A DNA stretch of 64,000 nt from Subsaxibacter sp. CAU 1640 (GTDB taxonomy: Bacteria > Bacteroidota > Bacteroidia > Flavobacteriales > Flavobacteriaceae): NCBI RefSeq assembly GCF_023156585.1, contig NZ_JALNMI010000005.1, forward strand, positions 248,001-312,000, given 5' to 3'. The notes below the pieces were generated by a model. That model was not told the origin of the DNA. It saw only the letters and a program-made list of their open reading frames with translations, and ran no database searches. Positions 18,474 through 34,384 of the stretch are shown piece by piece. Position 1 is the stretch's first letter, and each line of letters begins with the position of its first letter. A program made the position numbers and the translations under genes.

Positions 18474-18977
18474 CGTGTGTTATGTCATATCGGGCGTGTG
18501 TTCCGTCTATCCATTCATGTGTTGCGGTACATCGGGCGTGTGTTGTCCCTTACCCGACGTGTGTTGCCCTTATCCCGTCATGTGTTGTCCCTTACCCGAC
18601 GTGTGTTCTCCTTATCCCGTCATGTGTTGCCCCTTACCCGACATGTGTTGTCCTTATCCCGTCATGTGTTGTCACTTACCCGGCGTGTGTTGTCCTTAAC
18701 CCGACGTGTGTTGTCCTTCATCTGTCATATGTTCCGTCTTCCCAGTCATGTGTTGCGGTACATCTGGCGTGTGTTGTCCTTCACCCGACGTGTGTTGCCC
18801 TTATCCCGTCATGTGTTTTAACTTTCCCGACATGCGTTCTCCTTATCCCGTCGTGTGTTTTGACTTTCCCGACGTGTGTTGTCCTTTACCCGACATGTGT
18901 TCTCGCTTTCCCGTCGTGCGTTCTCGCTTTCCCGACGTGTGTTCTCCTTATCCCGTCGTTACAGGACAGTTTCCCGT
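18474..18977. repeat. Tandem array: 24 units of a 21-bp repeat
   Basis: The 764-bp gap 18403-19166 after guaB holds 24 contiguous 21-bp units (504 bp exactly), with a decayed 25th unit at 18978-18998. A 13-base core spanning unit joints, CCCG[A/T]C[G/A]TGTGTT, is conserved while the other 8 bases drift (for example GTCCCTTA, GCCCTTAT, CTCGCTTT). Units 1-5 (18474-18578) resemble units 12-16 (18705-18809), with unit 5 identical to unit 16, showing an 11-unit (231-bp) internal duplication. Because 21 is divisible by three, all forward frames stay open for up to 179 codons (18482-19021) but lack start context. There are no spacers, so it is not CRISPR. Confidence 0.9.
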
Positions 18978-19166
18978 GGTTACGGAACAAGTTCTCTAAA
19001 CATATGGTTGAAAAAATCTAGAAAATATCACTTCGTCATCCATCACATCTTCATAAAGAACCCTAAAACCACACTAAAAAACATTATATCCCATTAATTA
19101 ATCCATTAAATGAGTATTTTAGTGTTGATATAATGAGTTTTGCAAAATTTCTAACCGAGATCGAGA

Positions 19167-22388: not shown

Positions 22389-23048
22389 TTATTTAAACCT
22401 CCGCAACATAAAATGCCACTGAAACTTCTTGAATAACTCGATATTCATATACAGTTTCAAGTGTCTAGAGTTCAGCTTTTCCTTAAATCGAATGGCCGAT
22501 TTATTAAAATAATTGCTGATACTGTATTTCTTATGGATGCCTTTGTCGTTTAGATAACGGTAGCTCAAATATCGCAGATACGGAGCCAAGTTCTTGCCTC
22601 TGAAATCATCAAAAGTATACATGTTGAGTAAATAAGCTTCGTCAGAATTGATCCTAAACAGCTTATTCTTAAAGGTCAAGTCATCATATTTTATAAACAT
22701 ATAGGCAGCAACAGTGCCATTTTGGATGAGTCCTATACATTCCTGTCCATCTGCAATACTGATGTTTATTTTCTCTTGATTCAAATGGTCCGAAGCATTC
22801 AATAGGCTTTGCACCTGCGCTTCGTTTAAGGAAGTAAACTCAAAGTCGTCAGACTCCGATCTTAAAACAGGTTTGTCAGATGGCCTTACTTCTTCCGCTA
22901 CCCAATAATAGGGCATAATGTCAATACCAATTTTTGCCAAGGCATGCCGAAGTCCTTGAAAGAACAGACCATGTCGTATAGTGTTCCAAATGACCGACAG
23001 GCTGTAGGAAGACTTGTTTTTTCCGTTATGTGCGATTGCTTGTGGCAT
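22389..23048 (-). CDS. GNAT-like acetyltransferase
   Basis: 219 residues. The last 90 residues look like a GNAT fold: EAYLLNMYTFDDFRGKNLAP (acetyl-CoA motif A, about 139-158, in the degenerate FRGKNLAP form) and SNYFNKSAIRFKEKLN (motif B). The first 60 residues carry a possible amphipathic segment. This pattern matches acyl/acetyltransferase members used in polysaccharide or peptidoglycan-precursor modification, but no substrate is read. It starts 6 bp after the BKACE gene on the same strand, so both are probably one transcript. Confidence 0.6.
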   Translation of the reverse strand: MPQAIAHNGKNKSSYSLSVIWNTIRHGLFFQGLRHALAKIGIDIMPYYWVAEEVRPSDKPVLRSESDDFEFTSLNEAQVQSLLNASDHLNQEKINISIADGQECIGLIQNGTVAAYMFIKYDDLTFKNKLFRINSDEAYLLNMYTFDDFRGKNLAPYLRYLSYRYLNDKGIHKKYSISNYFNKSAIRFKEKLNSRHLKLYMNIELFKKFQWHFMLRRFK

Positions 23049-23054
23049 GGCTAC

Positions 23055-23924
23055 CTATGTAAAGTCTCGACCATAAGATCCATTCCCTGGATTCATGTTC
23101 ATTTTCTTCCGGAATTCTTCCGGCGTCATAATACCGCGTTCATTGGCTTCGGCAATCACATGAATACGTTCTATCATCTCATAGTTGGTAGCGAGTTTGG
23201 TCCTCGACGTGTCATACCAGATATTATCCTCAATGCCCACACGCACACCACCACCTACAGCGACGGCTAGAGAATTCATTTTAAGCTGATTGTTACCGAT
23301 GCCTGCCAAGCTCCAAAAAGAATTTTTCGGCAAATCGTTGATCATCACACCTGTGTGAAGCAAGTCAGCCTGTGCACAGGCAATATTTCCAAAAAGAAGA
23401 TTAAAGTAGTAAGGTGGTTGAATCAGTTTTTTCACCTCAAGGTATTTGGCATAGTTGATCATTCCATTGTCAAAAACTTCCAGTTCGGGTACCACACCGT
23501 TCTCTTTCATCACCCTTGCTAAATCCTGCACCATTTGAGGGCTATTGATACTCGCTTGCGTATTAAAATTTAGGGAACTCAAGGTCAAGCTACCCATGTC
23601 GGGTTTCAAATCGCCTTTGAGCAATACTGCATCGCTGCGTTGTTCCAGTTCACTAAAGTCGCGTCCGCTTAAAGACACGCATAGCACCAGCGTTGGTGCA
23701 TATTTTCTAATACCCGCCAGTATATCAGCATAGATCTCTTTCTCATAAGCAGGTTTTCCTGTCACGGCATCTCTTGCGTGCAAGTGAGCCATGGTGATGC
23801 CTAATTCACTCACCCGATGAACATCTTCCACTATTTCTGATACACTTACGGGAACGTGAGGTGTCATTTCTTTAGTAGGGATCATTCCGGTGGGAGTGAA
23901 ATTAATGATTAGTTTCTCTTCCAA
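23055..23924 (-). CDS. BKACE family enzyme (3-keto-5-aminohexanoate cleavage enzyme type, DUF849)
   Basis: 289 residues. The zinc-binding HLHARD (about 48-53) and the TIM-barrel motifs FNLLFGNIA, GGGVRVGIEDN and EVFDNGM are hallmarks of BKACE enzymes, which cleave a beta-keto acid with acetyl-CoA to acetoacetate and a CoA ester. The characterised member acts in lysine fermentation, but the family is functionally broad and no lysine-degradation gene is nearby. Downstream GNAT-like gene (6 bp) may act on the same pathway. Substrate unknown. Confidence 0.87.
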   Translation of the reverse strand: MEEKLIINFTPTGMIPTKEMTPHVPVSVSEIVEDVHRVSELGITMAHLHARDAVTGKPAYEKEIYADILAGIRKYAPTLVLCVSLSGRDFSELEQRSDAVLLKGDLKPDMGSLTLSSLNFNTQASINSPQMVQDLARVMKENGVVPELEVFDNGMINYAKYLEVKKLIQPPYYFNLLFGNIACAQADLLHTGVMINDLPKNSFWSLAGIGNNQLKMNSLAVAVGGGVRVGIEDNIWYDTSRTKLATNYEMIERIHVIAEANERGIMTPEEFRKKMNMNPGNGSYGRDFT

Positions 23925-24878: not shown

Positions 24879-25649
24879 ATGACAGTGACGGAGTTCGAAC
24901 CTATCATAAAGGTCATTGAGGAAGCTTATGAGATACCACACCTCAATGCCACACGCAAAATATCAGCCCTTCTACCACACGATTATTACCAGTCAGATAA
25001 AAGATATCCAGTACTCTATCTACAAGACGGACAAAATTTATTCAATCCCTATGCGCCTTTTGGAGATTGGGCGATTGATAAATCATTGGGCAAACTAGCC
25101 CAGCAAGGCATGAGCGATATCATCATTATTGCTATAGATCATGGTGAGCAAGAGCGTATCAGTGAGTATTTGCCATATTATCATCCACGTTTTGGTGAAG
25201 GAAAAGGCAATTTTTACATTCAGTTTATGATAGAAAAATTGATACCTTACATCAATAACAACTATCGAACGCTGCCCGATTTTCACAACACAGGCATTGG
25301 CGGTAGTTCAATGGGAGCGCTGATTAGTCTGCACGCAGGCTTGTCAAATCCAGGCGTGTTCGGTAAAATGATGGTGTTTTCACCGAGTCTCTGGATTTCA
25401 AAAAAGATTTTCAAGAACATCAAATCCTTTAAACCTCTTGAAAAATCCAAGATTTACATGTATTCGGGTGGTCAGGAAAGCGCAGAACACCTGCCGAATG
25501 CGCGTAAACTTGAGAAAATTATCAATAAAAAAATGGGGAAAGGTCATAATATAGAGTTCCATTTTTCTGTAAATGAACATGGCAATCATTCAGAAATGCA
25601 TTGGAGGGAAGAATTCCCAAAAGCAGTGGAATGGCTATTTTTTAAATAA
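24879..25649 (+). CDS. Alpha/beta-hydrolase esterase A (Fes/IroE-like) of ligase cluster
   Basis: 256 residues of the putative esterase family: RYPVLYLQDGQNLF (oxyanion region), nucleophile motif GGSSMG with Ser144, and late EHGNHSEMHWREEFP that supplies the histidine. No signal peptide, so cytosolic. This family hydrolyses esters such as enterobactin, S-formylglutathione and feruloyl esters. It is the first gene of a three-gene run (6 bp to the aminopeptidase) in the ATP-grasp/GCS2 locus, so it probably hydrolyses an ester or amide made by the cluster. Confidence 0.85.
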   Translation: MTVTEFEPIIKVIEEAYEIPHLNATRKISALLPHDYYQSDKRYPVLYLQDGQNLFNPYAPFGDWAIDKSLGKLAQQGMSDIIIIAIDHGEQERISEYLPYYHPRFGEGKGNFYIQFMIEKLIPYINNNYRTLPDFHNTGIGGSSMGALISLHAGLSNPGVFGKMMVFSPSLWISKKIFKNIKSFKPLEKSKIYMYSGGQESAEHLPNARKLEKIINKKMGKGHNIEFHFSVNEHGNHSEMHWREEFPKAVEWLFFK

Positions 25650-25655
25650 AAACCA

Positions 25656-27068
25656 ATGGACTACAAACACATTCAAAACATAGACAAAACCAAGGATTTG
25701 ATTGTTCCTGTTAAAAAGAATGATTCAAAATCCTTGAAAAAATATACTTCGGTAAAAGACGTGAACTTCAATGGCGACTTCGGCAGCATTTCAACGCTGT
25801 ATGGCGCCAAAGGAAATAAGATATATCTGTTGGGCATTGGCGAAGACAAAGACAACGTAAAGCTGGTCGAGGCCTTCAGAAAACTGTGTTTTGAAACAAA
25901 AAAGTATTGGAGCAAAAGCATTCAGTTGGTAGGTGAGGAGCTGTCTGAAGACGATATCCGTAAGGCGGTGACAGGCTTGGAATTGGGAACCTATGACATA
26001 GGCCAATTCAAATCAAAAAAGGAAAAAGCTACCAAATTCACGGTGGAAGTCTCCTCATCAAAAAACATCATATCCCAGTTGCAAGAAGGCAAACTGACAG
26101 GCGAAACGGTCAATCGCATCAAAGCCTTGGTCGATGCACCTGCCAATCATAAAACCCCTGAATTCCTTGGTAACTGGGCAAAAGAGTCTTCAAAGGCGTC
26201 AAATTACAAATGCACAGTGTTGCATCAAGATGAACTGAAAAAACAAGGCTTCGATGCGGTGATGGCTGTCGGTCAAGGCAGTGCAAATCCGCCTGTGGTC
26301 ATCATCAATGAGTATATGCCGAAGAAAGGCAAAAAGGTCGATATTGGCTTGGTCGGTAAGGGCATCACCTTCGATACGGGTGGTCTCTCCATCAAATCCT
26401 CCACAAATCTGCACTATATGAAAAGTGATATGGGTGGTGCAGCTGTGGTGTTGGGTGTGGTGGAATTGGTCGCCAAACTAAAATTGAATGTCAACATAGT
26501 AGGAGTCGTGTGCTCTGCCGAAAATGCGGTAGACAGCAACAGTTACCGTCCTGGTGATGTCATCAATTCGTATTCTGGCAAAACCATCGAAATCATTGAT
26601 ACCGATGCCGAAGGACGTTTGGTCTTGGCAGATGGCTTGAATTACATCATCAAAAAGTTCAAACCAGAACAAGTAATTGACTTGGCAACCTTAACGGGAA
26701 GCGTGGTGCAGACCTTGGGCTATTTTGCAGCAGGTATGTTCTCAAACAATACCGAAATGTCCAATCAAATGTCAAAAGTAGGCTATGAAACCAACGAGCG
26801 TGTGTGGCCATTGCCATTGTTTGAAGATTACGAAAGCGACCTGCACAGCGATGTGGCCGATTTACGCAACTTCAGTGGCAAACCAATTGCAGGTGCCATC
26901 ACGGCTGCAAAGTTTTTGGAAGCCTTTACAGAAGAACACAAAAGTTGGATGCACTTGGATATCGCTGGCGTATCCTTTGGCGATTCACCCTATGCAAAGA
27001 TGAAAAGCGCATCAGGCTATGGCGTACAATTGATTACCAATTATATTAAAACAAAAGTTGCGGAATAA
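25656..27068 (+). CDS. Leucyl aminopeptidase family (M17)
   Basis: 470 residues. N-terminal regulatory domain, then the M17 catalytic domain with the metal ligands: GKGITFDTGGLSIKSS (Lys/Asp), MKSDMGGAA, NTDAEGR in IIDTDAEGRLVLADGL, and the final AGVSFGDSPYAK. These use two divalent metals to remove N-terminal residues from peptides. The signature Glu/Arg of the DAEGR loop is intact, so the enzyme should be active. It lies 6 bp after esterase A and 84 bp before an ATP-grasp ligase, which suggests the cluster product contains a peptide bond. Confidence 0.92.
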   Translation: MDYKHIQNIDKTKDLIVPVKKNDSKSLKKYTSVKDVNFNGDFGSISTLYGAKGNKIYLLGIGEDKDNVKLVEAFRKLCFETKKYWSKSIQLVGEELSEDDIRKAVTGLELGTYDIGQFKSKKEKATKFTVEVSSSKNIISQLQEGKLTGETVNRIKALVDAPANHKTPEFLGNWAKESSKASNYKCTVLHQDELKKQGFDAVMAVGQGSANPPVVIINEYMPKKGKKVDIGLVGKGITFDTGGLSIKSSTNLHYMKSDMGGAAVVLGVVELVAKLKLNVNIVGVVCSAENAVDSNSYRPGDVINSYSGKTIEIIDTDAEGRLVLADGLNYIIKKFKPEQVIDLATLTGSVVQTLGYFAAGMFSNNTEMSNQMSKVGYETNERVWPLPLFEDYESDLHSDVADLRNFSGKPIAGAITAAKFLEAFTEEHKSWMHLDIAGVSFGDSPYAKMKSASGYGVQLITNYIKTKVAE

Positions 27069-27152
27069 CTCGATTTATTTTCCTATTTTTAAATCAATCA
27101 AGCTCATCTTGAGTCTAACAGCGTAGCTGTCTAACTTTCTAACAATCTAATT

Positions 27153-28355
27153 ATGTCTAATAACCATCCTCTCAACTTCCTTTGCATTACCACTTACCAT
27201 AAAGGTCAGGATTTTATGAAAAGCTGTAAAGCTGAAGGCAATAATGTTTATTTATTGACGAAAAAGAAACTCGAAAACGAGATTTGGCCTTGGGAATCGA
27301 TTGATGATGTGTTTTGGATTGACGACTGGAATCAAAATGACGTCGTAAAGGGAATTGCCTATAAGTTCAGAAACATTAAGTTTGATCGATTTGTGGCATT
27401 GGATGATTTTGATGTGGAAAAGGTAGCAATGCTTCGTGAACATTTCCGAATGGCTGGAATGGGTAGGACCACCGCACATTATTTCAGGGACAAGTTGGCG
27501 ATGCGTATGAAGGCAAAAGAAGAAGGCGTTAATGTGCCTGCATTTACATCTTTATTTCACGATGGAGACATCAATGAGTATGCAGATACGGTAAGTCCAC
27601 CTTGGCTGTTGAAACCGCGTATGGAAGCCTCGGCAACAGGCATCAAGAAAATTCACAGTAAAGATGAACTGTGGCAAATTGTTCACGGATTGGGCGATGA
27701 GCGCGATAATTATTTGGTGGAAAAGTTCGCACCAGGTGATGTCTACCACGTGGATGGATTGACTGTAGATGGAAAAGTAGTATTCTCTCGAGTAAGTAAA
27801 TATTTAGACACACCGTTTGAAGTGGCACACGGAGGCGGCATTTTTCGTTCGGCAAGTTGCGAGATAGGAAGCAAGGTCGAAAAAGGATTGACCAAGATGA
27901 ATGCTGACGTGATGAAAGCCTTCGGAATGCAATTTGGCGCGTCGCATACAGAGTTCATTCAAAATAGGGAATCTGGAGAGTTGTTCTTCTTGGAAACATC
28001 GTCTAGGGTAGGAGGCGCCAATTTGGCGGAGATGGTAGAGTTTGCCTCTGGCATCAACCTTTGGGGCGAATGGGCAAAAATCGAATCAAAAAACCTTAAA
28101 AAGCAAAAATACACACTTCCAAAAGCCAATAACAAATACGCTGGAATCGTAGTGTCCTTAAGCCGTTATGAGCATCCAGATACCTCCAGTTTTATGGATA
28201 AGGAAATCGTGTGGCGTATGCAAAAACCTTGGCACATTGGTTTAATCGTAGTATCCGACAGCAGCGAGCGTGTTATGGAATTGCTGGATAATTACACAAA
28301 GCGTATTTCAGAAGAATTCCACGCTAGCTTACCTGCACCGCCAAAGTCGTTGTAA
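27153..28355 (+). CDS. ATP-grasp ligase 1 of cluster
   Basis: 400 residues. ATP-grasp features can be followed in order: FRDKLAM (K114), WLLKPRMEASATG (K154, ATP lysine), YLVEKFAPGDVYHVDG (E190, adenine clamp), SHTEF (H265, E267) and FFLETSSRVGG (E281, R285, magnesium and phosphate). It is the carboxylate-amine/thiol ligase type that activates an acid as acyl phosphate. No biotin or known acceptor motif identifies the substrate. It is the third gene of the plus-strand run and meets the minus-strand operon tail to tail with 4 bp between stops. Confidence 0.88.
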   Translation: MSNNHPLNFLCITTYHKGQDFMKSCKAEGNNVYLLTKKKLENEIWPWESIDDVFWIDDWNQNDVVKGIAYKFRNIKFDRFVALDDFDVEKVAMLREHFRMAGMGRTTAHYFRDKLAMRMKAKEEGVNVPAFTSLFHDGDINEYADTVSPPWLLKPRMEASATGIKKIHSKDELWQIVHGLGDERDNYLVEKFAPGDVYHVDGLTVDGKVVFSRVSKYLDTPFEVAHGGGIFRSASCEIGSKVEKGLTKMNADVMKAFGMQFGASHTEFIQNRESGELFFLETSSRVGGANLAEMVEFASGINLWGEWAKIESKNLKKQKYTLPKANNKYAGIVVSLSRYEHPDTSSFMDKEIVWRMQKPWHIGLIVVSDSSERVMELLDNYTKRISEEFHASLPAPPKSL

Positions 28356-28359
28356 AAAA

Positions 28360-29520
28360 TTACTCTTTATCTGCCCAGTAGGAGATTTCAAATTCAAAGG
28401 AACTTGTCTTTTCGGGGTTGATGTAGACATTATCAGAGCCACCATTCAATTTTACGCCGCCTTCAGTTTCCCAATTGCCTCGGGTAAATTTAAATTCAGC
28501 TGGAGATTTTAAATTGAGTTTAATGCTTCTCTGAAAATCAGATATACGTTGCATTTTAACTTCACTAGGGTTCCAATTCCCTAAAGCCTGTTGATTTCCT
28601 GTGATATAAACATCATCTTCCTTATTCAGGACTTTCAAGTTAATTGTGACTTCATAAGATTTTGAAGAAAGATTCGGAAGAAATTCATCACGCATCTTAA
28701 AATAGGATTTGAAGCCATACATTAAACTTGGTGCAAAAGTAGGCCAATGGCTTTCTTCTGGAAATTCTTTGATGACGCTAGTCAATTTGTCTGATGGCAC
28801 TGAATTATTTAAAAATTCATAGACTTTATTTCTTGCAGGCAACCATTCTTTCCAATAATTGATACCTTCATCAGCATTACTTAAATAAACAAAGTTTTTA
28901 TGAGCTAGTTTTTGATAATCAAATTGTTTAAACTCATCGACCATCCGTTCTTTATCAAATGCAAAATTTGGTGAAATTGCAAAGTAAGCATCAAACAGAT
29001 TTGGGCTTTTAAACATTGAATATAATATGAATGAGGCACTTAAGGAATGCCCTATAGCGATACGGCTATGTTTGGTTCGATAATGACTATACATATAAGG
29101 AATAACTTCTTTTTCTACGTATCCTAAAAAATTGTCAGCATTGCCACTGTATCCGTTATAAAAAGTCTTTGGGTCTTCGTGTAATGGAGCAGGCAACATA
29201 TCATTGTTTCTGCTATAATCCAAACTTTCAATATAGGTTGACATAATACCAACAACTATAAAATTGCTGGAAGGAGCAGTAAAATTCAACAATGAATGTA
29301 CCAAATCAAAAAACTCCCTACTTTGAGCATCAAAAACATAGACGACTTCATAATGTGTCAATGAATTATCATCATAATAACTAGGTGTGTAAATCAACAT
29401 ATGCCTTTGTTGATTCAATTGCTTCGAATCAATGGTAATCTCTTCGATGCGAGGCATCTCTTGGCTGAAAACAGAACTGAATGCTAGAAAAAGCATCAAA
29501 AAGAAAAAACGGAAATTCAT
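28360..29520 (-). CDS. Secreted esterase C with C-terminal CBM20-like domain
   Basis: 386 residues with a Sec signal (MNFRFFFLMLFLAFSSVFSQ). Residues about 30-270 are an Fes/IroE-like alpha/beta hydrolase: QRHMLIYTPSYY, YVFDAQSREF, and nucleophile loop GHSLSA with Ser159, where the last Gly of GxSxG is Ser. The C-terminal about 95 residues (EVTINLKVLN, DDVYITGNQQALGNW, EFKFTRGNW) resemble a CBM20-type starch-binding/carbohydrate domain. It is the last gene of the minus-strand operon (24 bp after the previous gene) and the only member predicted to leave the cytoplasm. Confidence 0.8.
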   Translation of the reverse strand: MNFRFFFLMLFLAFSSVFSQEMPRIEEITIDSKQLNQQRHMLIYTPSYYDDNSLTHYEVVYVFDAQSREFFDLVHSLLNFTAPSSNFIVVGIMSTYIESLDYSRNNDMLPAPLHEDPKTFYNGYSGNADNFLGYVEKEVIPYMYSHYRTKHSRIAIGHSLSASFILYSMFKSPNLFDAYFAISPNFAFDKERMVDEFKQFDYQKLAHKNFVYLSNADEGINYWKEWLPARNKVYEFLNNSVPSDKLTSVIKEFPEESHWPTFAPSLMYGFKSYFKMRDEFLPNLSSKSYEVTINLKVLNKEDDVYITGNQQALGNWNPSEVKMQRISDFQRSIKLNLKSPAEFKFTRGNWETEGGVKLNGGSDNVYINPEKTSSFEFEISYWADKE

Positions 29521-29544
29521 AAGCGATATATTAAAAATGGAAAT

Positions 29545-30744
29545 TTATCCTTCAAAAAACCCAGTACTGCCGCCTACCCAAGTTTTGTCTTTGTTGTATT
29601 TGACACCGACCATTTCGCCTTTGCTCAAGCGCATTAGATTACTTACGATTTGGGTTTTGTTGGTTTGAGAATTGTGAAGCAACATCATTCGGATTTCACA
29701 TTTGGCTGGCACATCCATTGTTTCAATGATAGGAGCGTAAGCCACCTTTTCTTGAAGCAAGTAATTCGATTTGTCTTTGATGTCGTCAATCATTTCCTTG
29801 GTAACGTGAATCTGTACACCTGCACCAGCAAAGGAATATAATGGCTTCAAAACATAATTTTCCAAGTCAGAAGGGATGGTTTCGAGTTTGTTGAGGTAAT
29901 AGGATTTCGGCACATAATCGCCTTTCAAAAGAGGCATCGTGTATTTACTAATACGGAAGAACCAATTGGGATGTCCTACCCATTCAATGTCCACATCATC
30001 CTGAAAACTGAATTCCGTCTTTAAATCTTGTCGCTGATTCAGTTCGTCAAAAATGATTCGGTTGTAAACTCTTTTAATTTGAATGTCATTGCCATTATCA
30101 TCTTTGTAAAACAGATTTTTGCCACGTTTGATTAGTTTGGTAATGCATAACACCTTGATGCCAAGCGCTTTTTCTGTCGCAAAGAAATCGATAGCTGTGG
30201 CTTGTTTTTCTGGTTCTATCTCAAGCAATACGACTTGTTTTGGGTCAGCATCGCCTACAATTTCCTGTCGTAATAATTCCACATAATCAGTACTGGTCAT
30301 TCCATATAAATGCTGTGAAAAATCCTTTGGAATACCATCATAATGCTTGCGGTACATACGTCCCAATAACTCCTGAAAAAAATATAGGGAAGGAAATCCT
30401 TGAAGCTCTATCAACTTCGGTGTTGGGTTGCCATCTTCATCAAGGCAGATTCCAAAATCCAGCTGAATAAATTTGGACTGTGCATCTTCATTGGGAACAC
30501 GCATACTGTCCTCAAAAAAGGCACCTTCGGTCAATTCTTTAAAATTCGGCTGATTGATGACTTTCATAATATCATCACAAGCCGTTACCAGTCGCTCTTT
30601 CAATTCCTTCGGAATAAATGCAGGCGTTTCACAAATCTTAAATGCGGGTTTGTAATTGTAAGTCGTTACAATATCATCTTGAAGATTTTGGTATTTTTCT
30701 TCAGAAAACTGTGCATTAAACGCTTTGCGAATGGCTGGTATCAT
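29545..30744 (-). CDS. ATP-grasp-like ligase 2 (circularly permuted or divergent)
   Basis: 399 residues. A pre-ATP-grasp-like part contains KQVVLLEIEPEKQATAIDFF, LGIKVLCITKL and KRVYNRIIFDEL. The later part has VLKPLYSFAGAGVQIHV (about 303-320; lysine and Gly-rich loop) and LLQEKV...KCEIRMMLLH (about 340-367), consistent with ATP-grasp strands. Resembles glutathionylspermidine synthase/carboxylate-amine ligase relatives; I am sure of the fold family only moderately. It starts 7 bp after the amidotransferase gene and ends 24 bp before the secreted esterase, clearly in the operon. Confidence 0.65.
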   Translation of the reverse strand: MIPAIRKAFNAQFSEEKYQNLQDDIVTTYNYKPAFKICETPAFIPKELKERLVTACDDIMKVINQPNFKELTEGAFFEDSMRVPNEDAQSKFIQLDFGICLDEDGNPTPKLIELQGFPSLYFFQELLGRMYRKHYDGIPKDFSQHLYGMTSTDYVELLRQEIVGDADPKQVVLLEIEPEKQATAIDFFATEKALGIKVLCITKLIKRGKNLFYKDDNGNDIQIKRVYNRIIFDELNQRQDLKTEFSFQDDVDIEWVGHPNWFFRISKYTMPLLKGDYVPKSYYLNKLETIPSDLENYVLKPLYSFAGAGVQIHVTKEMIDDIKDKSNYLLQEKVAYAPIIETMDVPAKCEIRMMLLHNSQTNKTQIVSNLMRLSKGEMVGVKYNKDKTWVGGSTGFFEG

Positions 30745-30751
30745 CAGTAAA

Positions 30752-31570
30752 TCAAGAAATTAGTTGATGTGTGTTGTGGTGAATGGCTTCGGTGATGAAT
30801 TTTGGCAAAATCACACTATAAGTTCTGATGATTTTATCCTCATCATCCATTTTGTCCATCATATCATTGTATTTGGCTTCGCCATAATTTGTAATCACTT
30901 TTTGGCGATTGACTGCTTCCGAAAAATGGGCATACATACCCACTGGGTCGGCTTCCGGATGGAATTGCGTACCGACAAACTCTTCAGAAAATCGAACAGC
31001 CATAATGGCACGTTCATACTCCACGTGTGTTCTTATTTTTTCAAGGCTCAAAATCTTACAGCCTTTTTCCTTAAAAACTTTCAATCGAGGTTGAATCAAC
31101 TGCCAACTTCTGGAATCTACTGCCCAAAATGGGTCGTCCAGTCCGTCAAGCATTCGGTCTTTAATACCTTCTTTAGTTTTATGTACAGGCATAATTCCGA
31201 AAGACGTGCTCTTTCTTGGTTTCATCTCACCCAATTGAAAATAATCACAAACCACTTGGAATGAATAGCAAATCAAGAAGACATATTTTTTCTCTTCGGA
31301 TGAATTCTTATTGAAATCCCATAGATTTTGAATCAAATCTAGATAAGGCTGCCTCCAAGTGCCTTCTTCTAAAGGGCTTCCTGGTCCACCACTGGAAATA
31401 TAAATGTCATAAGATAAATCGGGCAATTCATTCTTTGCCCTTACATTGTAGATTTTAAAATCAACTTCCTTGTTGAATGATTTGGCAATATCCGCAATAC
31501 AACGCAACCCTTGGTTGGGCTCATCGTTGTTCATATCCAAAATTGCCATTTTTACTTTTTGCTTCTGCAT
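30752..31570 (-). CDS. Class I glutamine amidotransferase domain protein of cluster
   Basis: 272 residues, a stand-alone GATase1 fold. Nucleophile elbow LICYSFQVV with Cys101 (the classical GxCxG is altered to ICYSF) and catalytic HPEADP with His204 and Glu206; oxyanion loop SSGGPGSP (59-66). Amidotransferases hydrolyse glutamine to ammonia or, as gamma-glutamyl hydrolases, cleave gamma-glutamyl peptides. Position between the GCS2 ligase (10 bp) and ATP-grasp 2 (7 bp) suggests a nitrogen-supply or gamma-glutamyl-removal step. All catalytic residues are present. Confidence 0.88.
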   Translation of the reverse strand: MQKQKVKMAILDMNNDEPNQGLRCIADIAKSFNKEVDFKIYNVRAKNELPDLSYDIYISSGGPGSPLEEGTWRQPYLDLIQNLWDFNKNSSEEKKYVFLICYSFQVVCDYFQLGEMKPRKSTSFGIMPVHKTKEGIKDRMLDGLDDPFWAVDSRSWQLIQPRLKVFKEKGCKILSLEKIRTHVEYERAIMAVRFSEEFVGTQFHPEADPVGMYAHFSEAVNRQKVITNYGEAKYNDMMDKMDDEDKIIRTYSVILPKFITEAIHHNTHQLIS

Positions 31571-31580
31571 CTTCTCTTTT

Positions 31581-32675
31581 CTATGTTCCCAAAATAGTTT
31601 GCTCTACAATGTAGTCAACCACTTTGGTCAAATCTTTTGTCTCTGCAAAGATAGCCAATTGTCGGTCAGCACCTGTACCATTTTTGATCATAGTTTTAAC
31701 GTGCTCAATCTCTTTTCTGGAACCTAATTCATCTACCACATCATCCACAAAATCAAGAAGTTCTTGCATCAATTCTCGAGTATCAACTTCACATTCCTTA
31801 CCAAAATCAATCATCCTGCCATCAAGACCATAACGGCTGGCACGCCATTTATTTTCGTTGATAAGTGCTCTGTGGTACAACATAAAATTGAGGTTTTGAG
31901 TGCGCAACTTATACAGTTTTGCCACCAATGCCTGTATCAATGCCGAAATGCTCAAAGTTTCTTCAATGGTCATTGGCACATCACAAATTCGAACTTCCAA
32001 AGTCGGAAAGAATGGATGCATACGAATGTCCCACCAAATTTTCTTCGGATTATCGATACATTTTGTTTTGACAAGCAAATCTATATAATGATGATATTCT
32101 GCAACCGTCTGAAAAACGCCAGGTATACCGGTTCTAGGGAATTTATCAAAAACCTTCGAACGAAAGGACTTGAAACCTGTATTTCGACCTTCCCAAAATG
32201 GTGAGTTAGTTGACAATGCATACAAATGGGGTAAAAAGTAACGCATAGCGTTGGTCAAATGCAGGCACATTTGTTTATCCTCAATCCCAACGTGCACGTG
32301 CAATCCGAAAATCAAATTGGAACGAGCCGTATCCTGCAATTCATTGACAATCTCGTCATAGCGTGGATTGGGTGTAATGAGCTGTGTCTCCCATTTGGTA
32401 AAAGGATGTGTTCCAGCAGCTCCAATGTTGAATCCCAAATCTTTGGCAATGCTCGATATGGATTTGCGAAGATGAGTAATCTCTTGGCGTGCTTCGGTGA
32501 TGTCGTTGCAAATATTAGTACCTACTTCCACCACAGCTTGGTGCATTTCAGCCTTTACTTGCTCATTCAATACTTTCGCCGCTTCGGTAACAATCTGCTG
32601 GTCGTGAGATACTAATTCTCTGGTATTCGGGCAGATGACCTGATACTCTTCTTCAATACCTATTGTGAAGTTCAT
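31581..32675 (-). CDS. Carboxylate-amine ligase (GCS2/YbdK family)
   Basis: 364 residues with the GCS2 signature: IGIEEEYQV (metal-binding glutamates 8-10), FGLHVHVGIED, NSPFWEGRNTGFKSFRS, and VRICDVPMTIEE. GCS2 members ligate an acid such as glutamate to an amine such as cysteine, using ATP in a glutamine-synthetase-like fold. The E. coli relative YbdK has weak glutamate-cysteine ligase activity, so the true substrate here may differ. It is tightly packed (11 bp upstream to ATP-grasp 3, 10 bp downstream to the amidotransferase). Confidence 0.9.
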   Translation of the reverse strand: MNFTIGIEEEYQVICPNTRELVSHDQQIVTEAAKVLNEQVKAEMHQAVVEVGTNICNDITEARQEITHLRKSISSIAKDLGFNIGAAGTHPFTKWETQLITPNPRYDEIVNELQDTARSNLIFGLHVHVGIEDKQMCLHLTNAMRYFLPHLYALSTNSPFWEGRNTGFKSFRSKVFDKFPRTGIPGVFQTVAEYHHYIDLLVKTKCIDNPKKIWWDIRMHPFFPTLEVRICDVPMTIEETLSISALIQALVAKLYKLRTQNLNFMLYHRALINENKWRASRYGLDGRMIDFGKECEVDTRELMQELLDFVDDVVDELGSRKEIEHVKTMIKNGTGADRQLAIFAETKDLTKVVDYIVEQTILGT

Positions 32676-32686
32676 AGAGAAATCTA

Positions 32687-33649
32687 TTATTTAAAAGTTG
32701 TCTTTTTGCCAGTAATTTGGTCTTTTACAAAAGTTCCCCAAGTAAGGTTCATTTTGCCTTTTTTGTACTGTTTTGCTTTTTCAATGGCCATATTGGCTGC
32801 ATTCTCAACAATCCAATCAAAATTTTCTTGACCTACTGAATTGACATCAGCATCTGGCGCAGGATTACAGAAATCAATCGCATAAGGAATGCCATCTCTT
32901 ACGGCAAACTCTACGGTATTGAAATCATAACCCAATGCTTTATTTAAGCGAATGCAATACTTTCTAACCGTATCAAGTAATTTCTTTTGAACCGGTGGAC
33001 CATCAATCACATATCTTAAATGATGCGGATTTCTCGGTTCATACTGCATAATATGTACATTTTCAGTATTTAAAACATAACATCTGAAATATTCGGTAAA
33101 GATGATTTCCTCTTGAAGCATCATTACCAAATGTTCAGTTTCGCCGTGTTTTTTCCATAAATCCTCTGGGCTTTCAACTTTATAAACACTTTTCCAACCA
33201 CCACCATCGTGTGGTTTCATATAGGCAGGAAAACCGATGGTTTCAAACATATGTTCCCAAGCAAAAGGGAATTTCATATTTCTAAATGATGTTTCTTGTG
33301 TATTTGGCGGACGATGGGATGTTGGTAAAATAAAGGTTTTCGGTACAGGAACACCAACGGTTTCTGCCAATCCGTTATTAAAGAACTTTTCATCAGCACT
33401 CCACCAGAATGGATTATTGATGACAGCAGTTCCTGAAAGTGCAGCATTCTTTAGGTATGCTCTATAAAAAGGCACGTCTTGGGAGATTCTATCAATAATG
33501 ACTGCATAATCGGTAGGTTTTGCTTGCTCAACCATTTCGATGGAAACAGCTTCTGCCTTTATGTCTTTCAAACCTTTTTCATTGACTCTATCTATAAATG
33601 CCTGCGGAAAGGTATTCTCCATTCCGAATAAGATGCCTATTTTTTTCAT
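32687..33649 (-). CDS. ATP-grasp ligase 3 of cluster
   Basis: 320 residues. Pre-ATP-grasp domain with KKIGILFGMENTFP and DYAVIIDRISQDVPFYRAYL (an Asp-Arg loop like RimK/GshB). ATP-binding loop YMKPHDGGGWKSVYKV (about 143-158), hinge MLQEEIIFTEYFRCY, and metal ligands EFAVRDGIPYAIDFCNPAPD (about 242-261). This is a RimK/D-Ala-D-Ala-ligase-like carboxylate-amine ligase. It lies 30 bp after esterase B and 11 bp before the GCS2 gene, placing two ligases back to back. Confidence 0.87.
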   Translation of the reverse strand: MKKIGILFGMENTFPQAFIDRVNEKGLKDIKAEAVSIEMVEQAKPTDYAVIIDRISQDVPFYRAYLKNAALSGTAVINNPFWWSADEKFFNNGLAETVGVPVPKTFILPTSHRPPNTQETSFRNMKFPFAWEHMFETIGFPAYMKPHDGGGWKSVYKVESPEDLWKKHGETEHLVMMLQEEIIFTEYFRCYVLNTENVHIMQYEPRNPHHLRYVIDGPPVQKKLLDTVRKYCIRLNKALGYDFNTVEFAVRDGIPYAIDFCNPAPDADVNSVGQENFDWIVENAANMAIEKAKQYKKGKMNLTWGTFVKDQITGKKTTFK

Positions 33650-33679
33650 AATGTATTAAGATGTAATGTTAGTTGATGA

Positions 33680-34384
33680 TTATAATTTTGATAAATAGTG
33701 TGGAAACATATCTCTCCAAATGGGCCAGTCGTGTTTGGCCCATTTGCGTTCGTCATACCAGAAAGGAATGTTTTTAGAGCGTAAAATATCGGCCATTTGC
33801 TTATTGGCGTCCAAACAAATATCCCATTCGCCTACGCCAAGAATGATTTTCATATTCCAAAGGTCCGGATGGTCATTGCCAGGCATAAAATCAACAGGAT
33901 TATTAAAGTAAGCATTGGTATCATAATAACCATCCAGAAATGATTTGATGTCAAAAGCACCACTCATACTGAACATATGACTGACACTTTCGGGATGTCG
34001 AAATGCGAAATTAGCAGCCTGATAGCCTCCAAAACTTGGTCCTGCCACAGCTACTTTTGGTATTTTTTTCTCCTCACGAATGCGATGTACAAGTTCATTC
34101 ATAATGAATTCATCATACCACATATGATTTCTTATTCGGTCAGCAGGATGGATATTTTTATTATACCAACTTAACTCGTTGATACTATCTGGGCAATAGA
34201 TTTGAACAAGACCTTCGTTGAGAAACCACGCAACAGAGTCTATCAATTTCATATCATAACATTCGTTGTGTTTCCCCATTGTGGTAGGGAACAAAATCAC
34301 TGGATAGCCTGCGTGCCCAAATACAAGCATTTCTATGTCGGTACTCAAGGTTGGTGAATACCATTTAAAATGTTCTTTTTTCAA
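33680..34384 (-). CDS. Cytosolic esterase B, first gene of ligase operon
   Basis: 234 residues of the D-esterase/putative-esterase type: MKKEHFKWYSPTLSTDIEML, FPTTMGKHNECYDM, nucleophile GPSFGG with Ser117, and the C-terminal KWAKHDWPIW giving the histidine. No signal peptide. Most likely hydrolyses or transfers an acyl group, perhaps with release of a ligated product. It begins the six-gene minus-strand operon; 246 bp of AT-rich DNA with no gene separates it from the LETM1-related gene, and no clear promoter element was found there. Confidence 0.85.
   Translation of the reverse strand: MKKEHFKWYSPTLSTDIEMLVFGHAGYPVILFPTTMGKHNECYDMKLIDSVAWFLNEGLVQIYCPDSINELSWYNKNIHPADRIRNHMWYDEFIMNELVHRIREEKKIPKVAVAGPSFGGYQAANFAFRHPESVSHMFSMSGAFDIKSFLDGYYDTNAYFNNPVDFMPGNDHPDLWNMKIILGVGEWDICLDANKQMADILRSKNIPFWYDERKWAKHDWPIWRDMFPHYLSKL

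What the first reader, a model, noticed from the sequence alone, without database searches (positions are those of the whole stretch)
24879..34384. Convergent nine-gene ATP-grasp/GCS2/amidotransferase/esterase locus
Two runs meet tail to tail 4 bp apart: plus strand esterase A, M17 aminopeptidase, ATP-grasp 1; minus strand esterase B, ATP-grasp 3, GCS2 ligase, class I amidotransferase, ATP-grasp-like 2, secreted esterase C. Inside the minus run gaps are 30, 11, 10, 7 and 24 bp, so it reads as one operon. Three carboxylate-amine ligase types, a glutaminase-type enzyme, an aminopeptidase and three hydrolases in one place look like a pathway that builds, trims and releases an amide- or peptide-linked molecule. 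Known families explain each part but I know of no characterised pathway with this exact set. Sequence shows the gene order and motifs; the pathway is inference.
Basis: partly seen in the sequence, partly recalled or inferred. Interest (0 to 1): 0.85.

Follow-up and report, generated by a model that had tools for sequence, protein, structure and literature searches.

The report
Widespread unknown peptide-ligase pathway in Bacteroidota
A set of three or four ATP-driven amide-bond-forming enzymes, with trimming peptidases and small esterases, travels together through many Bacteroidota and probably builds and recycles a small peptide-like molecule that has yet to be identified.

Summary
The nine genes are at the stated coordinates with the stated gaps, and the adjacency is not chance. 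Of the 80 best-scoring named relatives (of at least 585), 38 carry the whole core EstC-AG2-GCS2-GAT-AG3 on one strand in this order and none breaks the order. In 395 phylum genomes AG1, AG2, AG3 and GAT co-occur even when unlinked: AG1 is in 80 genomes, all among the 135 with AG2. The conserved unit is not nine genes: EstB was seen beside it in one same-genus genome only, EstA-M17-AG1 is a separable module, and GCS2 was not found in 13 of 13 tested genomes whose loci lack it (without a positive control). AG3 has the glutathione-synthetase/YgiC fold with altered motifs (columns aligned by eye). GAT has a Cys-His-Glu triad; in some lineages an M29 aminopeptidase stands in its place. In others a circularly permuted ATP-grasp stands in place of GCS2 plus AG3. 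Best reading: a cytosolic pathway that builds a small peptide or gamma-glutamyl amide by successive ATP-dependent ligations, with exchangeable trimming hydrolases. Product unknown. New variant of a known kind.

The parts
24879..25649 (+). EstA, 256 aa, PF00756 serine esterase (weakly enterochelin-esterase-like), GSSMG motif
   Evidence: found in 23 of 80 named loci
25656..27068 (+). M17 leucyl-type aminopeptidase, 470 aa, TDAEGRL motif; the only M17 match in this genome
   Evidence: 24 of 80 loci
27153..28355 (+). AG1, ATP-grasp of the L-amino-acid ligase type (closest solved: 4wd3)
   Evidence: E 5.6e-25; 80 of 395 genomes, all of them AG2-positive
28360..29520 (-). EstB, secreted-looking PF00756 esterase with CBM20; not part of the conserved unit
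   Evidence: (only in L013 of 10 loci)
29545..30744 (-). AG3, ATP-grasp of glutathione-synthetase/glutathionylspermidine-synthetase/YgiC fold
   Evidence: catalytic columns
30752..31570 (-). GAT, class I glutamine-amidotransferase-fold hydrolase; C101, H204 and E206 invariant in 20 rows; ICxS(F/Y)Q elbow
31581..32675 (-). GCS2, YbdK-type carboxylate-amine ligase (PRK13515)
32687..33649 (-). AG2, RimK/R2K/Ddl-like ATP-grasp ligase (weak matches); the most widespread of the four genes tallied
33680..34384 (-). EstC, 234 aa cytosolic-looking esterase; S117, D188 and H218 invariant in 18 rows

Best explanation
The locus encodes one cytosolic pathway, patchily spread through Bacteroidota, that makes and recycles a small non-ribosomal peptide or gamma-glutamyl-type amide. 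Shown: the genes co-occur and keep one order. Inferred: AG2 (a RimK/Ddl-like ATP-grasp and the hub) joins two small acids or amino acids through an acyl-phosphate. AG3 (glutathione-synthetase/YgiC fold) adds the next amine or amino acid. GCS2, where present, supplies a gamma-glutamyl-type building block. GAT hydrolyses an amide (gamma-glutamyl or terminal) of the intermediate or product, a step that an M29 aminopeptidase can take over. EstC, and EstA or its relatives, remove an ester or acyl group. AG1 (L-amino-acid ligase type) and M17 form a side module that makes and breaks a dipeptide precursor. Estimates: one pathway 0.9; successive amide ligation as its chemistry 0.8; GAT a peptidase rather than an ammonia donor 0.6; the exact step order 0.2.
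For: Core complete and in order in 38 of 80 loci, 0 order violations in 80 among the core genes present. The 10 same-family genomes with AG3, other than the window's own, all carry the five-gene core. Pairwise distances of the five core proteins correlate across 40 loci (Spearman 0.76-0.88, highest permutation 0.37). In 395 genomes: AG3 115, AG2 135, both 110; AG1 80, all with AG2; GAT 86, 84 with AG2. In 45 of the 110, AG2 and AG3 are over 30 kb apart or on different contigs, so co-occurrence is not only linkage. In the 7 same-order genomes of the sample that have AG3 (G155, G238, G350, G405, G417, G448, G471), AG1, AG2, GAT and AG3 lie on one strand within 7 kb (coordinates). AG3 fold: YgiC/YjfC Z 25.8, human glutathione synthetase Z 23.8. 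AG1: L-amino-acid ligase 4wd3, E 5.6e-25. M29: in 8 of 42 GAT-less genomes, within 1 kb upstream of AG3 on its strand in 7 of the 8 and between AG2 and AG3 in 6; in 0 of 20 GAT-positive genomes, picked by hand from 86. In 10 of 11 fetched AG3-less loci (of 25 AG2-positive, AG3-less genomes) an ATP-grasp homologous to that of L121 is found, by translated search, on the AG2 side of GAT where GAT is in the locus (52-64% identity in the nine others; L121's is the one scanned with Pfam, a circularly permuted ATP-grasp).
Against: No substrate or product is known and no assay bears on it. Shared ancestry inflates the co-occurrence P values. In AG3 the column that aligns by eye with the catalytic Arg of R-x-D holds Q, A, C or V, and the E-x-N motif reads E-x-Q in 25 of 25 rows, so its chemistry may differ from glutathione synthetase. 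Of 42 genomes with AG2 and AG3 but no GAT, only 8 have the M29 gene; in 34 no trimming hydrolase was identified. GCS2 not found in 13 of 13 tested genomes argues against GAT merely undoing GCS2; but that query was never run on a genome known to hold GCS2. 22 of 80 loci have AG3 without AG2 nearby. AG2 has no solved close relative and was not modelled.
Confidence: 0.55

Rival explanations
1. It makes a glutathione-like thiol: GCS2 forms gamma-Glu-Cys, AG3 or AG2 adds a third residue, M17 degrades Cys-Gly-like remnants, esterases cleave S-acyl adducts.
For: GCS2-type ligase plus a glutathione-synthetase-fold ligase in one operon; M17 and PF00756 esterases fit thiol turnover (family knowledge, recalled).
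Against: GCS2 is of the YbdK/PRK13515 type, far below the cut-off of the gshA_cyano equivalog (68 against 249 bits). GCS2 was not found in 13 of 13 tested genomes that keep AG3 (no positive control). The window's genome has the bacillithiol enzyme BshC (470.8 bits, cut-off 265.8), so a low-molecular-weight thiol route is probably already present. AG3 motif changes.
Confidence: 0.15
2. It makes a peptide-polyamine or other peptide-amine conjugate: AG3 works like YgiC/YjfC and couples a peptide carboxylate to spermidine or a similar amine.
For: Highest fold Z to YgiC/YjfC and GspS (25.8 to 24.0), and the only sequence-profile hit is YgiC (E 0.0068). PMC12568646 (passages) cites a paper on peptide-spermidine ligase activity of YgiC and YjfC.
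Against: Fold Z is nearly tied with glutathione synthetases (24.3 to 23.4); about 13% identity; outside the set no gene family recurs in more than 9 of 87 loci, so no conserved polyamine gene lies beside it.
Confidence: 0.2
3. GAT is a true glutaminase that feeds ammonia to one of the ligases, so the product carries a primary carboxamide.
For: C101/H204/E206 invariant in 20 rows; best Z to TM1158 and DnfC glutamine amidotransferases (23.2, 22.5).
Against: Gamma-glutamyl peptidase GGP1 is within about 1.3 Z units and ranks above TM1158 in Foldseek; the nucleophile elbow has Ser in the place of the usual second Gly (recalled motif); an M29 aminopeptidase, which is not known to make ammonia from glutamine (recalled), lies in its place in other lineages.
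Confidence: 0.3
4. The set modifies a protein or ribosomal target (RimK- or R2K-like tagging), and GAT, M17 and M29 remove the tag.
For: AG2 has weak RimK and R2K_2 matches; the R2K clade is proposed to modify proteins (PMC4431377, passages).
Against: Those AG2 matches are below cut-offs; the partners (glutathione-synthetase fold, GCS2, L-amino-acid ligase type) are mostly small-molecule enzymes; outside the set no gene family recurs in more than 9 of 87 loci.
Confidence: 0.08
5. Adjacency by chance of unrelated housekeeping genes.
For: None beyond the broad families involved.
Against: flanking genes serve as negative controls.
Confidence: 0.02

Closest known systems
Glutathione biosynthesis (GCL of GCS2 type + eukaryotic-type glutathione synthetase)
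   Same: A GCS2-fold carboxylate-amine ligase and a glutathione-synthetase-fold ATP-grasp in one operon
   Different: A second and third ATP-grasp (AG2, AG1), a GAT-fold hydrolase and esterases; GCS2 apparently optional; AG3 altered at two motif positions (by eye)
YgiC/YjfC/GspS peptide-polyamine ligases
   Same: Same fold over the whole AG3 chain (Z about 24-25.8)
   Different: 10-13% identity; no fused amidase domain; different gene context
Gamma-glutamyl peptidase GGP1 / standalone class I GATases (TM1158, DnfC)
   Same: GAT fold and, as recalled for these enzymes, a Cys-His-Glu triad
   Different: ICxS(F/Y)Q elbow, about 12-15% identity, part of a ligase operon
L-amino-acid ligases (4wd3, BL00235, BacD)
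   Same: AG1 profile similarity (E 5.6e-25, 3.3e-11 and 1.2e-6)
   Different: AG1 was found only in genomes with AG2 (80 of 80) and often beside M17
Amidoligase neighbourhoods predicted by Iyer et al. 2009 (recalled; not readable here)
   Same: Same general kind as I recall it: ATP-grasp and other ligases linked to peptidases
   Different: Could not be compared; this exact set may or may not be listed there

Membership tests
Glutathione biosynthesis | Dedicated glutamate-cysteine ligase | tested here: not met
   GCS2 passes PRK13515 (537 against 371 bits) and the YbdK-family model TIGR02050 (312 against 176) but not gshA_cyano (68 against 249)
Glutathione biosynthesis | Glutathione-synthetase fold | tested here: met
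   AG3 against 2hgs Z 23.8, rmsd 4.0, 371 aligned
Glutathione biosynthesis | R-x-D and E-x-N catalytic motifs | tested here: inconclusive
   Q/A/C/V-x-D and E-x-Q in 25 rows; equivalence of the columns is by eye, compared with R139/D141/E163/N165 of Cp1B (passage)
YgiC/GspS peptide-amine ligases | Fold over the full chain | tested here: met
   YgiC Z 25.8, rmsd 3.5, 342 aligned, 13% identity
YgiC/GspS peptide-amine ligases | Polyamine as amine substrate | not testable with these tools
   needs an assay
Class I glutamine amidotransferase | Cys-His-Glu triad | tested here: met
   C101, H204, E206 invariant in 20 rows
Class I glutamine amidotransferase | Glutamine hydrolysis coupled to a synthase | not testable with these tools
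   an M29 peptidase between AG2 and AG3 in 6 GAT-less genomes speaks against it
Gamma-glutamyl peptidase (GGP1-like) | Fold and triad | tested here: inconclusive
   Z 21.9 against 23.2 for TM1158
L-amino-acid ligase | ATP-grasp sequence similarity over the ligase core | tested here: met
   4wd3, E 5.6e-25, profile 49-305
M17 aminopeptidase | Catalytic domain and TDAEGRL motif | tested here: met
   378.9 bits; motif
Secreted secondary-metabolite cluster | Recurrent exporter, regulator or resistance gene beside the set | tested here: not met
   Outside the core, the trio and the F8 esterase no family recurs in more than 9 of 87 loci; those minor families were mostly not named, many loci are short, and an exporter elsewhere in the genome would be missed
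Graspetide (ATP-grasp RiPP) | Precursor peptide gene | tested here: inconclusive
   No room inside the runs (gaps 4-84 bp); the flanks were not scanned for short ORFs

The most novel reading that the evidence does not exclude
About a third of Bacteroidota make an undescribed small molecule with its own modular ligase chemistry, in which AG2 is constant while the second ligase (AG3 or a circularly permuted ATP-grasp), the GCS2 ligase (present or not) and the trimming hydrolase (GAT or M29) are swapped like cassettes: a phylum-wide cofactor, thiol, osmolyte or nitrogen-store analogue.
Probability: 0.35. Interest if true: 0.82.

Novelty: new variant of a known kind. Interest (0 to 1): 0.62.

Why it matters
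Mostly single-copy, cytosolic-looking, with no recurrent neighbour outside the set and a fixed gene order, it looks like core metabolism rather than a weapon (inference). AG2 was found in 135 and AG3 in 115 of 395 sampled genomes, and named strains of Algoriphagus, Chitinophaga, Spirosoma and Flavobacterium carry AG3 with core genes. A knock-out plus metabolomics could reveal the compound directly. The module swaps (GAT for M29; GCS2 plus AG3 for a circularly permuted ATP-grasp) are natural experiments that narrow down each step.

Tried and rejected
Chance adjacency: rejected (flanking genes as controls). Nine-gene unit: rejected (EstB not conserved, modules separable). Gene 34631 as a member: rejected (4 of 80 loci; LETM1-like domain). 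Plasmid-borne element: AG3 had no match in the plasmid collection (tblastn). Toxin or antibiotic cluster: nothing outside the set recurs in more than 9 of 87 loci. Histidine ammonia-lyase (L132, L136) and amidohydrolase (L133) beside AG2 or AG3 in split genomes: seen in one or two genomes each, named but not followed. Promoter and terminator scan: promoters near the shuffle background, 13 terminator-like sites against 7.7 expected; not used. Sequence search of AG2 against the PDB gave only weak hits; no structure was predicted for AG2, since both prediction jobs went to AG3 and GAT. Literature: searches (listings only) and passages of two papers gave no account of this set; most subscription papers are not held, so absence from print is not shown.

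Row choices: A3-A7 hold 10-20 sequences and A2 holds 25, taken from 23 hand-picked loci with an ORF within 20% of the window's length; L027 and L036 were then dropped by hand from A2-A6 as near-duplicates of other rows, and three AG3-only loci were added to A2. One search used 40 of 87 loci, those with all five core ORFs called at 80% length or more. One search counted hits covering at least 30% of a query. GAT and AG1 tallies used stricter E-values (1e-20, 1e-30) than AG2 and AG3 (1e-3); eight AG2-positive genomes with weaker best matches (G150, G230, G356, G427, G497, G508, G528, and G301 at 1e-108) may hold paralogues, and no row was removed for that. Of 25 AG2-positive, AG3-less genomes 11 were fetched.
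Full report
Observation. The nine ORFs are present at the stated coordinates, tail to tail 4 bp apart and with the gaps given. The window lies in a 3.47 Mb genome on contig 5.

Does the set travel? AG3 was found in 11 of 120 genomes of the family, the window's own included. The 10 others all carry EstC-AG2-GCS2-GAT-AG3 in that order, 5 of the 10 also have EstA-M17-AG1 tail to tail with it, and EstB is in one. Of these 80, 38 have the complete ordered core, 16 have AG2-GAT-AG3 without GCS2, 22 have no AG2 in the locus, 21 have the AG1-M17-EstA trio (AG1 and M17 on the opposite strand in all 21), and none breaks the order among the core genes present (many loci are cut by contig ends). In L041, L042 and L066 AG1 instead follows AG3 on the same strand. 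Flanking genes of the window act as controls: BKACE, GNAT, HtpG and FabH 0 of 80, the 34631 gene 4 of 80; a FabH paralogue does recur in 4 of 10 same-family loci. Distances between the five core proteins correlate across 40 loci, so they were probably inherited or transferred as a block. The window's AG3 is closer to that of MAGs labelled Saprospiraceae and Chitinophagales (65 and 64%) than to that of another clade of its own family (44-48%), which suggests horizontal transfer (inference).

Co-occurrence without linkage. In the same 395 phylum genomes AG3 is in 115, AG2 in 135, GAT in 86 and AG1 in 80. AG2 and AG3 share 110; all 80 AG1 genomes have AG2; 84 of 86 GAT genomes have AG2; 254 genomes have none of the four. 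Of the 110, 62 have AG2 and AG3 within 8 kb, 3 at 8-30 kb and 45 further apart or on different contigs. Of the 22 named loci without AG2, the genomes of 15 were searched: 13 have an AG2 elsewhere, one (L031) only a 75-residue remnant with a stop, one (L067, a MAG) none (the window's genome was the positive control). In the 7 same-order genomes of the sample that have AG3, AG1, AG2, GAT and AG3 are co-directional within 7 kb (coordinates). These facts tie AG1 to the pathway although it is convergent in the window. The P values ignore shared ancestry.

Parts. AG3 was modelled with high confidence (pLDDT 92) and matches YgiC, YjfC, GspS and glutathione synthetases over the whole chain (Z 25.8 to about 22). 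Its D96, E113, Q115, R229, K300, E350 and N369 are invariant in 25 rows; the column that aligns by eye with the catalytic Arg is Q, A, C or V, and the E-x-N motif reads E-x-Q. Cp1B residues R139, D141, E163 and N165, named in a passage of PMC12568646, are the comparison. GAT (pLDDT 90.8) has an invariant Cys-His-Glu triad and folds like TM1158, DnfC, GGP1 and homoserine transsuccinylase within about 1.5 Z units, so its reaction is not settled by fold. AG1 is of L-amino-acid ligase type. GCS2 is of YbdK type. EstC has invariant S117, D188 and H218. M17 is the only M17 match in the genome.

Swaps. (a) In two Ignavibacteria-labelled loci (L088, L090) the gene between GCS2 and AG3 is an M29 aminopeptidase. 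Of 62 genomes tested, 8 have this M29 at E 1e-40 or better: 8 of the 42 with AG2 and AG3 but no GAT, 0 of 20 with GAT, these 20 picked by hand (Fisher 0.046). In 7 of the 8 it lies upstream of AG3 on the same strand, 19 to 959 bp away, and in 6 of these AG2 lies on its other side. One of the 8 (G236) is 98% identical to the L090 query and so not independent of it. This points to a peptidase role for GAT but leaves 34 of 42 GAT-less genomes unexplained. (b) GCS2 was not found in 13 of 13 genomes of loci lacking it; the tool warns that an empty answer without a positive control shows nothing, and only the Pfam model, not this alignment, was shown to ring in the window's genome. (c) Eleven AG2-positive, AG3-less loci were fetched. 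In 10 of them tblastn with the L121 protein finds an ATP-grasp beside AG2 (52-64% in the nine others), on the AG2 side of GAT where GAT is in the locus; L131 has none. The L121 protein passes PF14403, circularly permuted ATP-grasp (37.3 against 32 bits), matches a putative glutathionylspermidine synthase (3n6x, E 9.9e-10) and reads R-x-D and E-x-N by eye. Whether GCS2 lies elsewhere in those genomes was not tested. (d) A PF00756 esterase follows GAT in the four such loci scanned (L121, L122, L124, L128), so esterases recur in differing forms.

Explanation. The most economical reading is successive ATP-dependent amide ligations (AG2, then AG3 or its replacement, with GCS2 and AG1 as suppliers), trimming by GAT or M29 and by M17, and ester removal by EstC and EstA. 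Co-occurrence, order and folds are shown; substrates, step order and direction are inferred. A glutathione-like thiol is possible but less likely, because GCS2 appears optional and the host has BshC; the genome also has one GSH-S_ATP match (75 bits) whose role was not examined. A peptide-polyamine product is possible from the YgiC-like fold.

Known or new. No paper found describes the set (searches, listings only; passages), but the library lacks most subscription papers and the 2009 amidoligase survey, which I recall as predicting neighbourhoods of this kind. I therefore class it as a new variant of a known kind.

Noticed in passing
window 18482-19021 (array 18537-18959): A tandem repeat of 21-bp units (also fitted as 42 and 84 bp), about 20 copies at 72% match, right after an IMP-dehydrogenase-like ORF (named by eye); the ORF over it is low-complexity Cys/Pro/Val and may not be a gene.
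   Followed up: partly
L031 (Polaribacter filamentus) and its genome: The cassette looks decayed: no EstC, M17 or EstA in the locus, AG1 only as a partial match, and AG2 only as a 75-residue remnant with a stop.
   Followed up: no
L132:8650-10182, L136:8726-10228: A histidine ammonia-lyase gene lies directly behind AG2 in two genomes of one family where AG2 and AG3 are separated.
   Followed up: partly
L133:5957-7423: An Amidohydro_3 gene abuts or overlaps the start of AG3 in a genome where AG2 is on another contig.
   Followed up: no
L019-L022: A FabH-like gene (36-38% to the window's FabH) recurs 2.8-3.5 kb downstream of AG3 in four of five loci of the second clade of the family.
   Followed up: no
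window 22389-23924: BKACE (beta-keto acid cleavage enzyme) beside a GNAT-like protein, just before the locus; neither was found in the 80 relative loci.
   Followed up: partly
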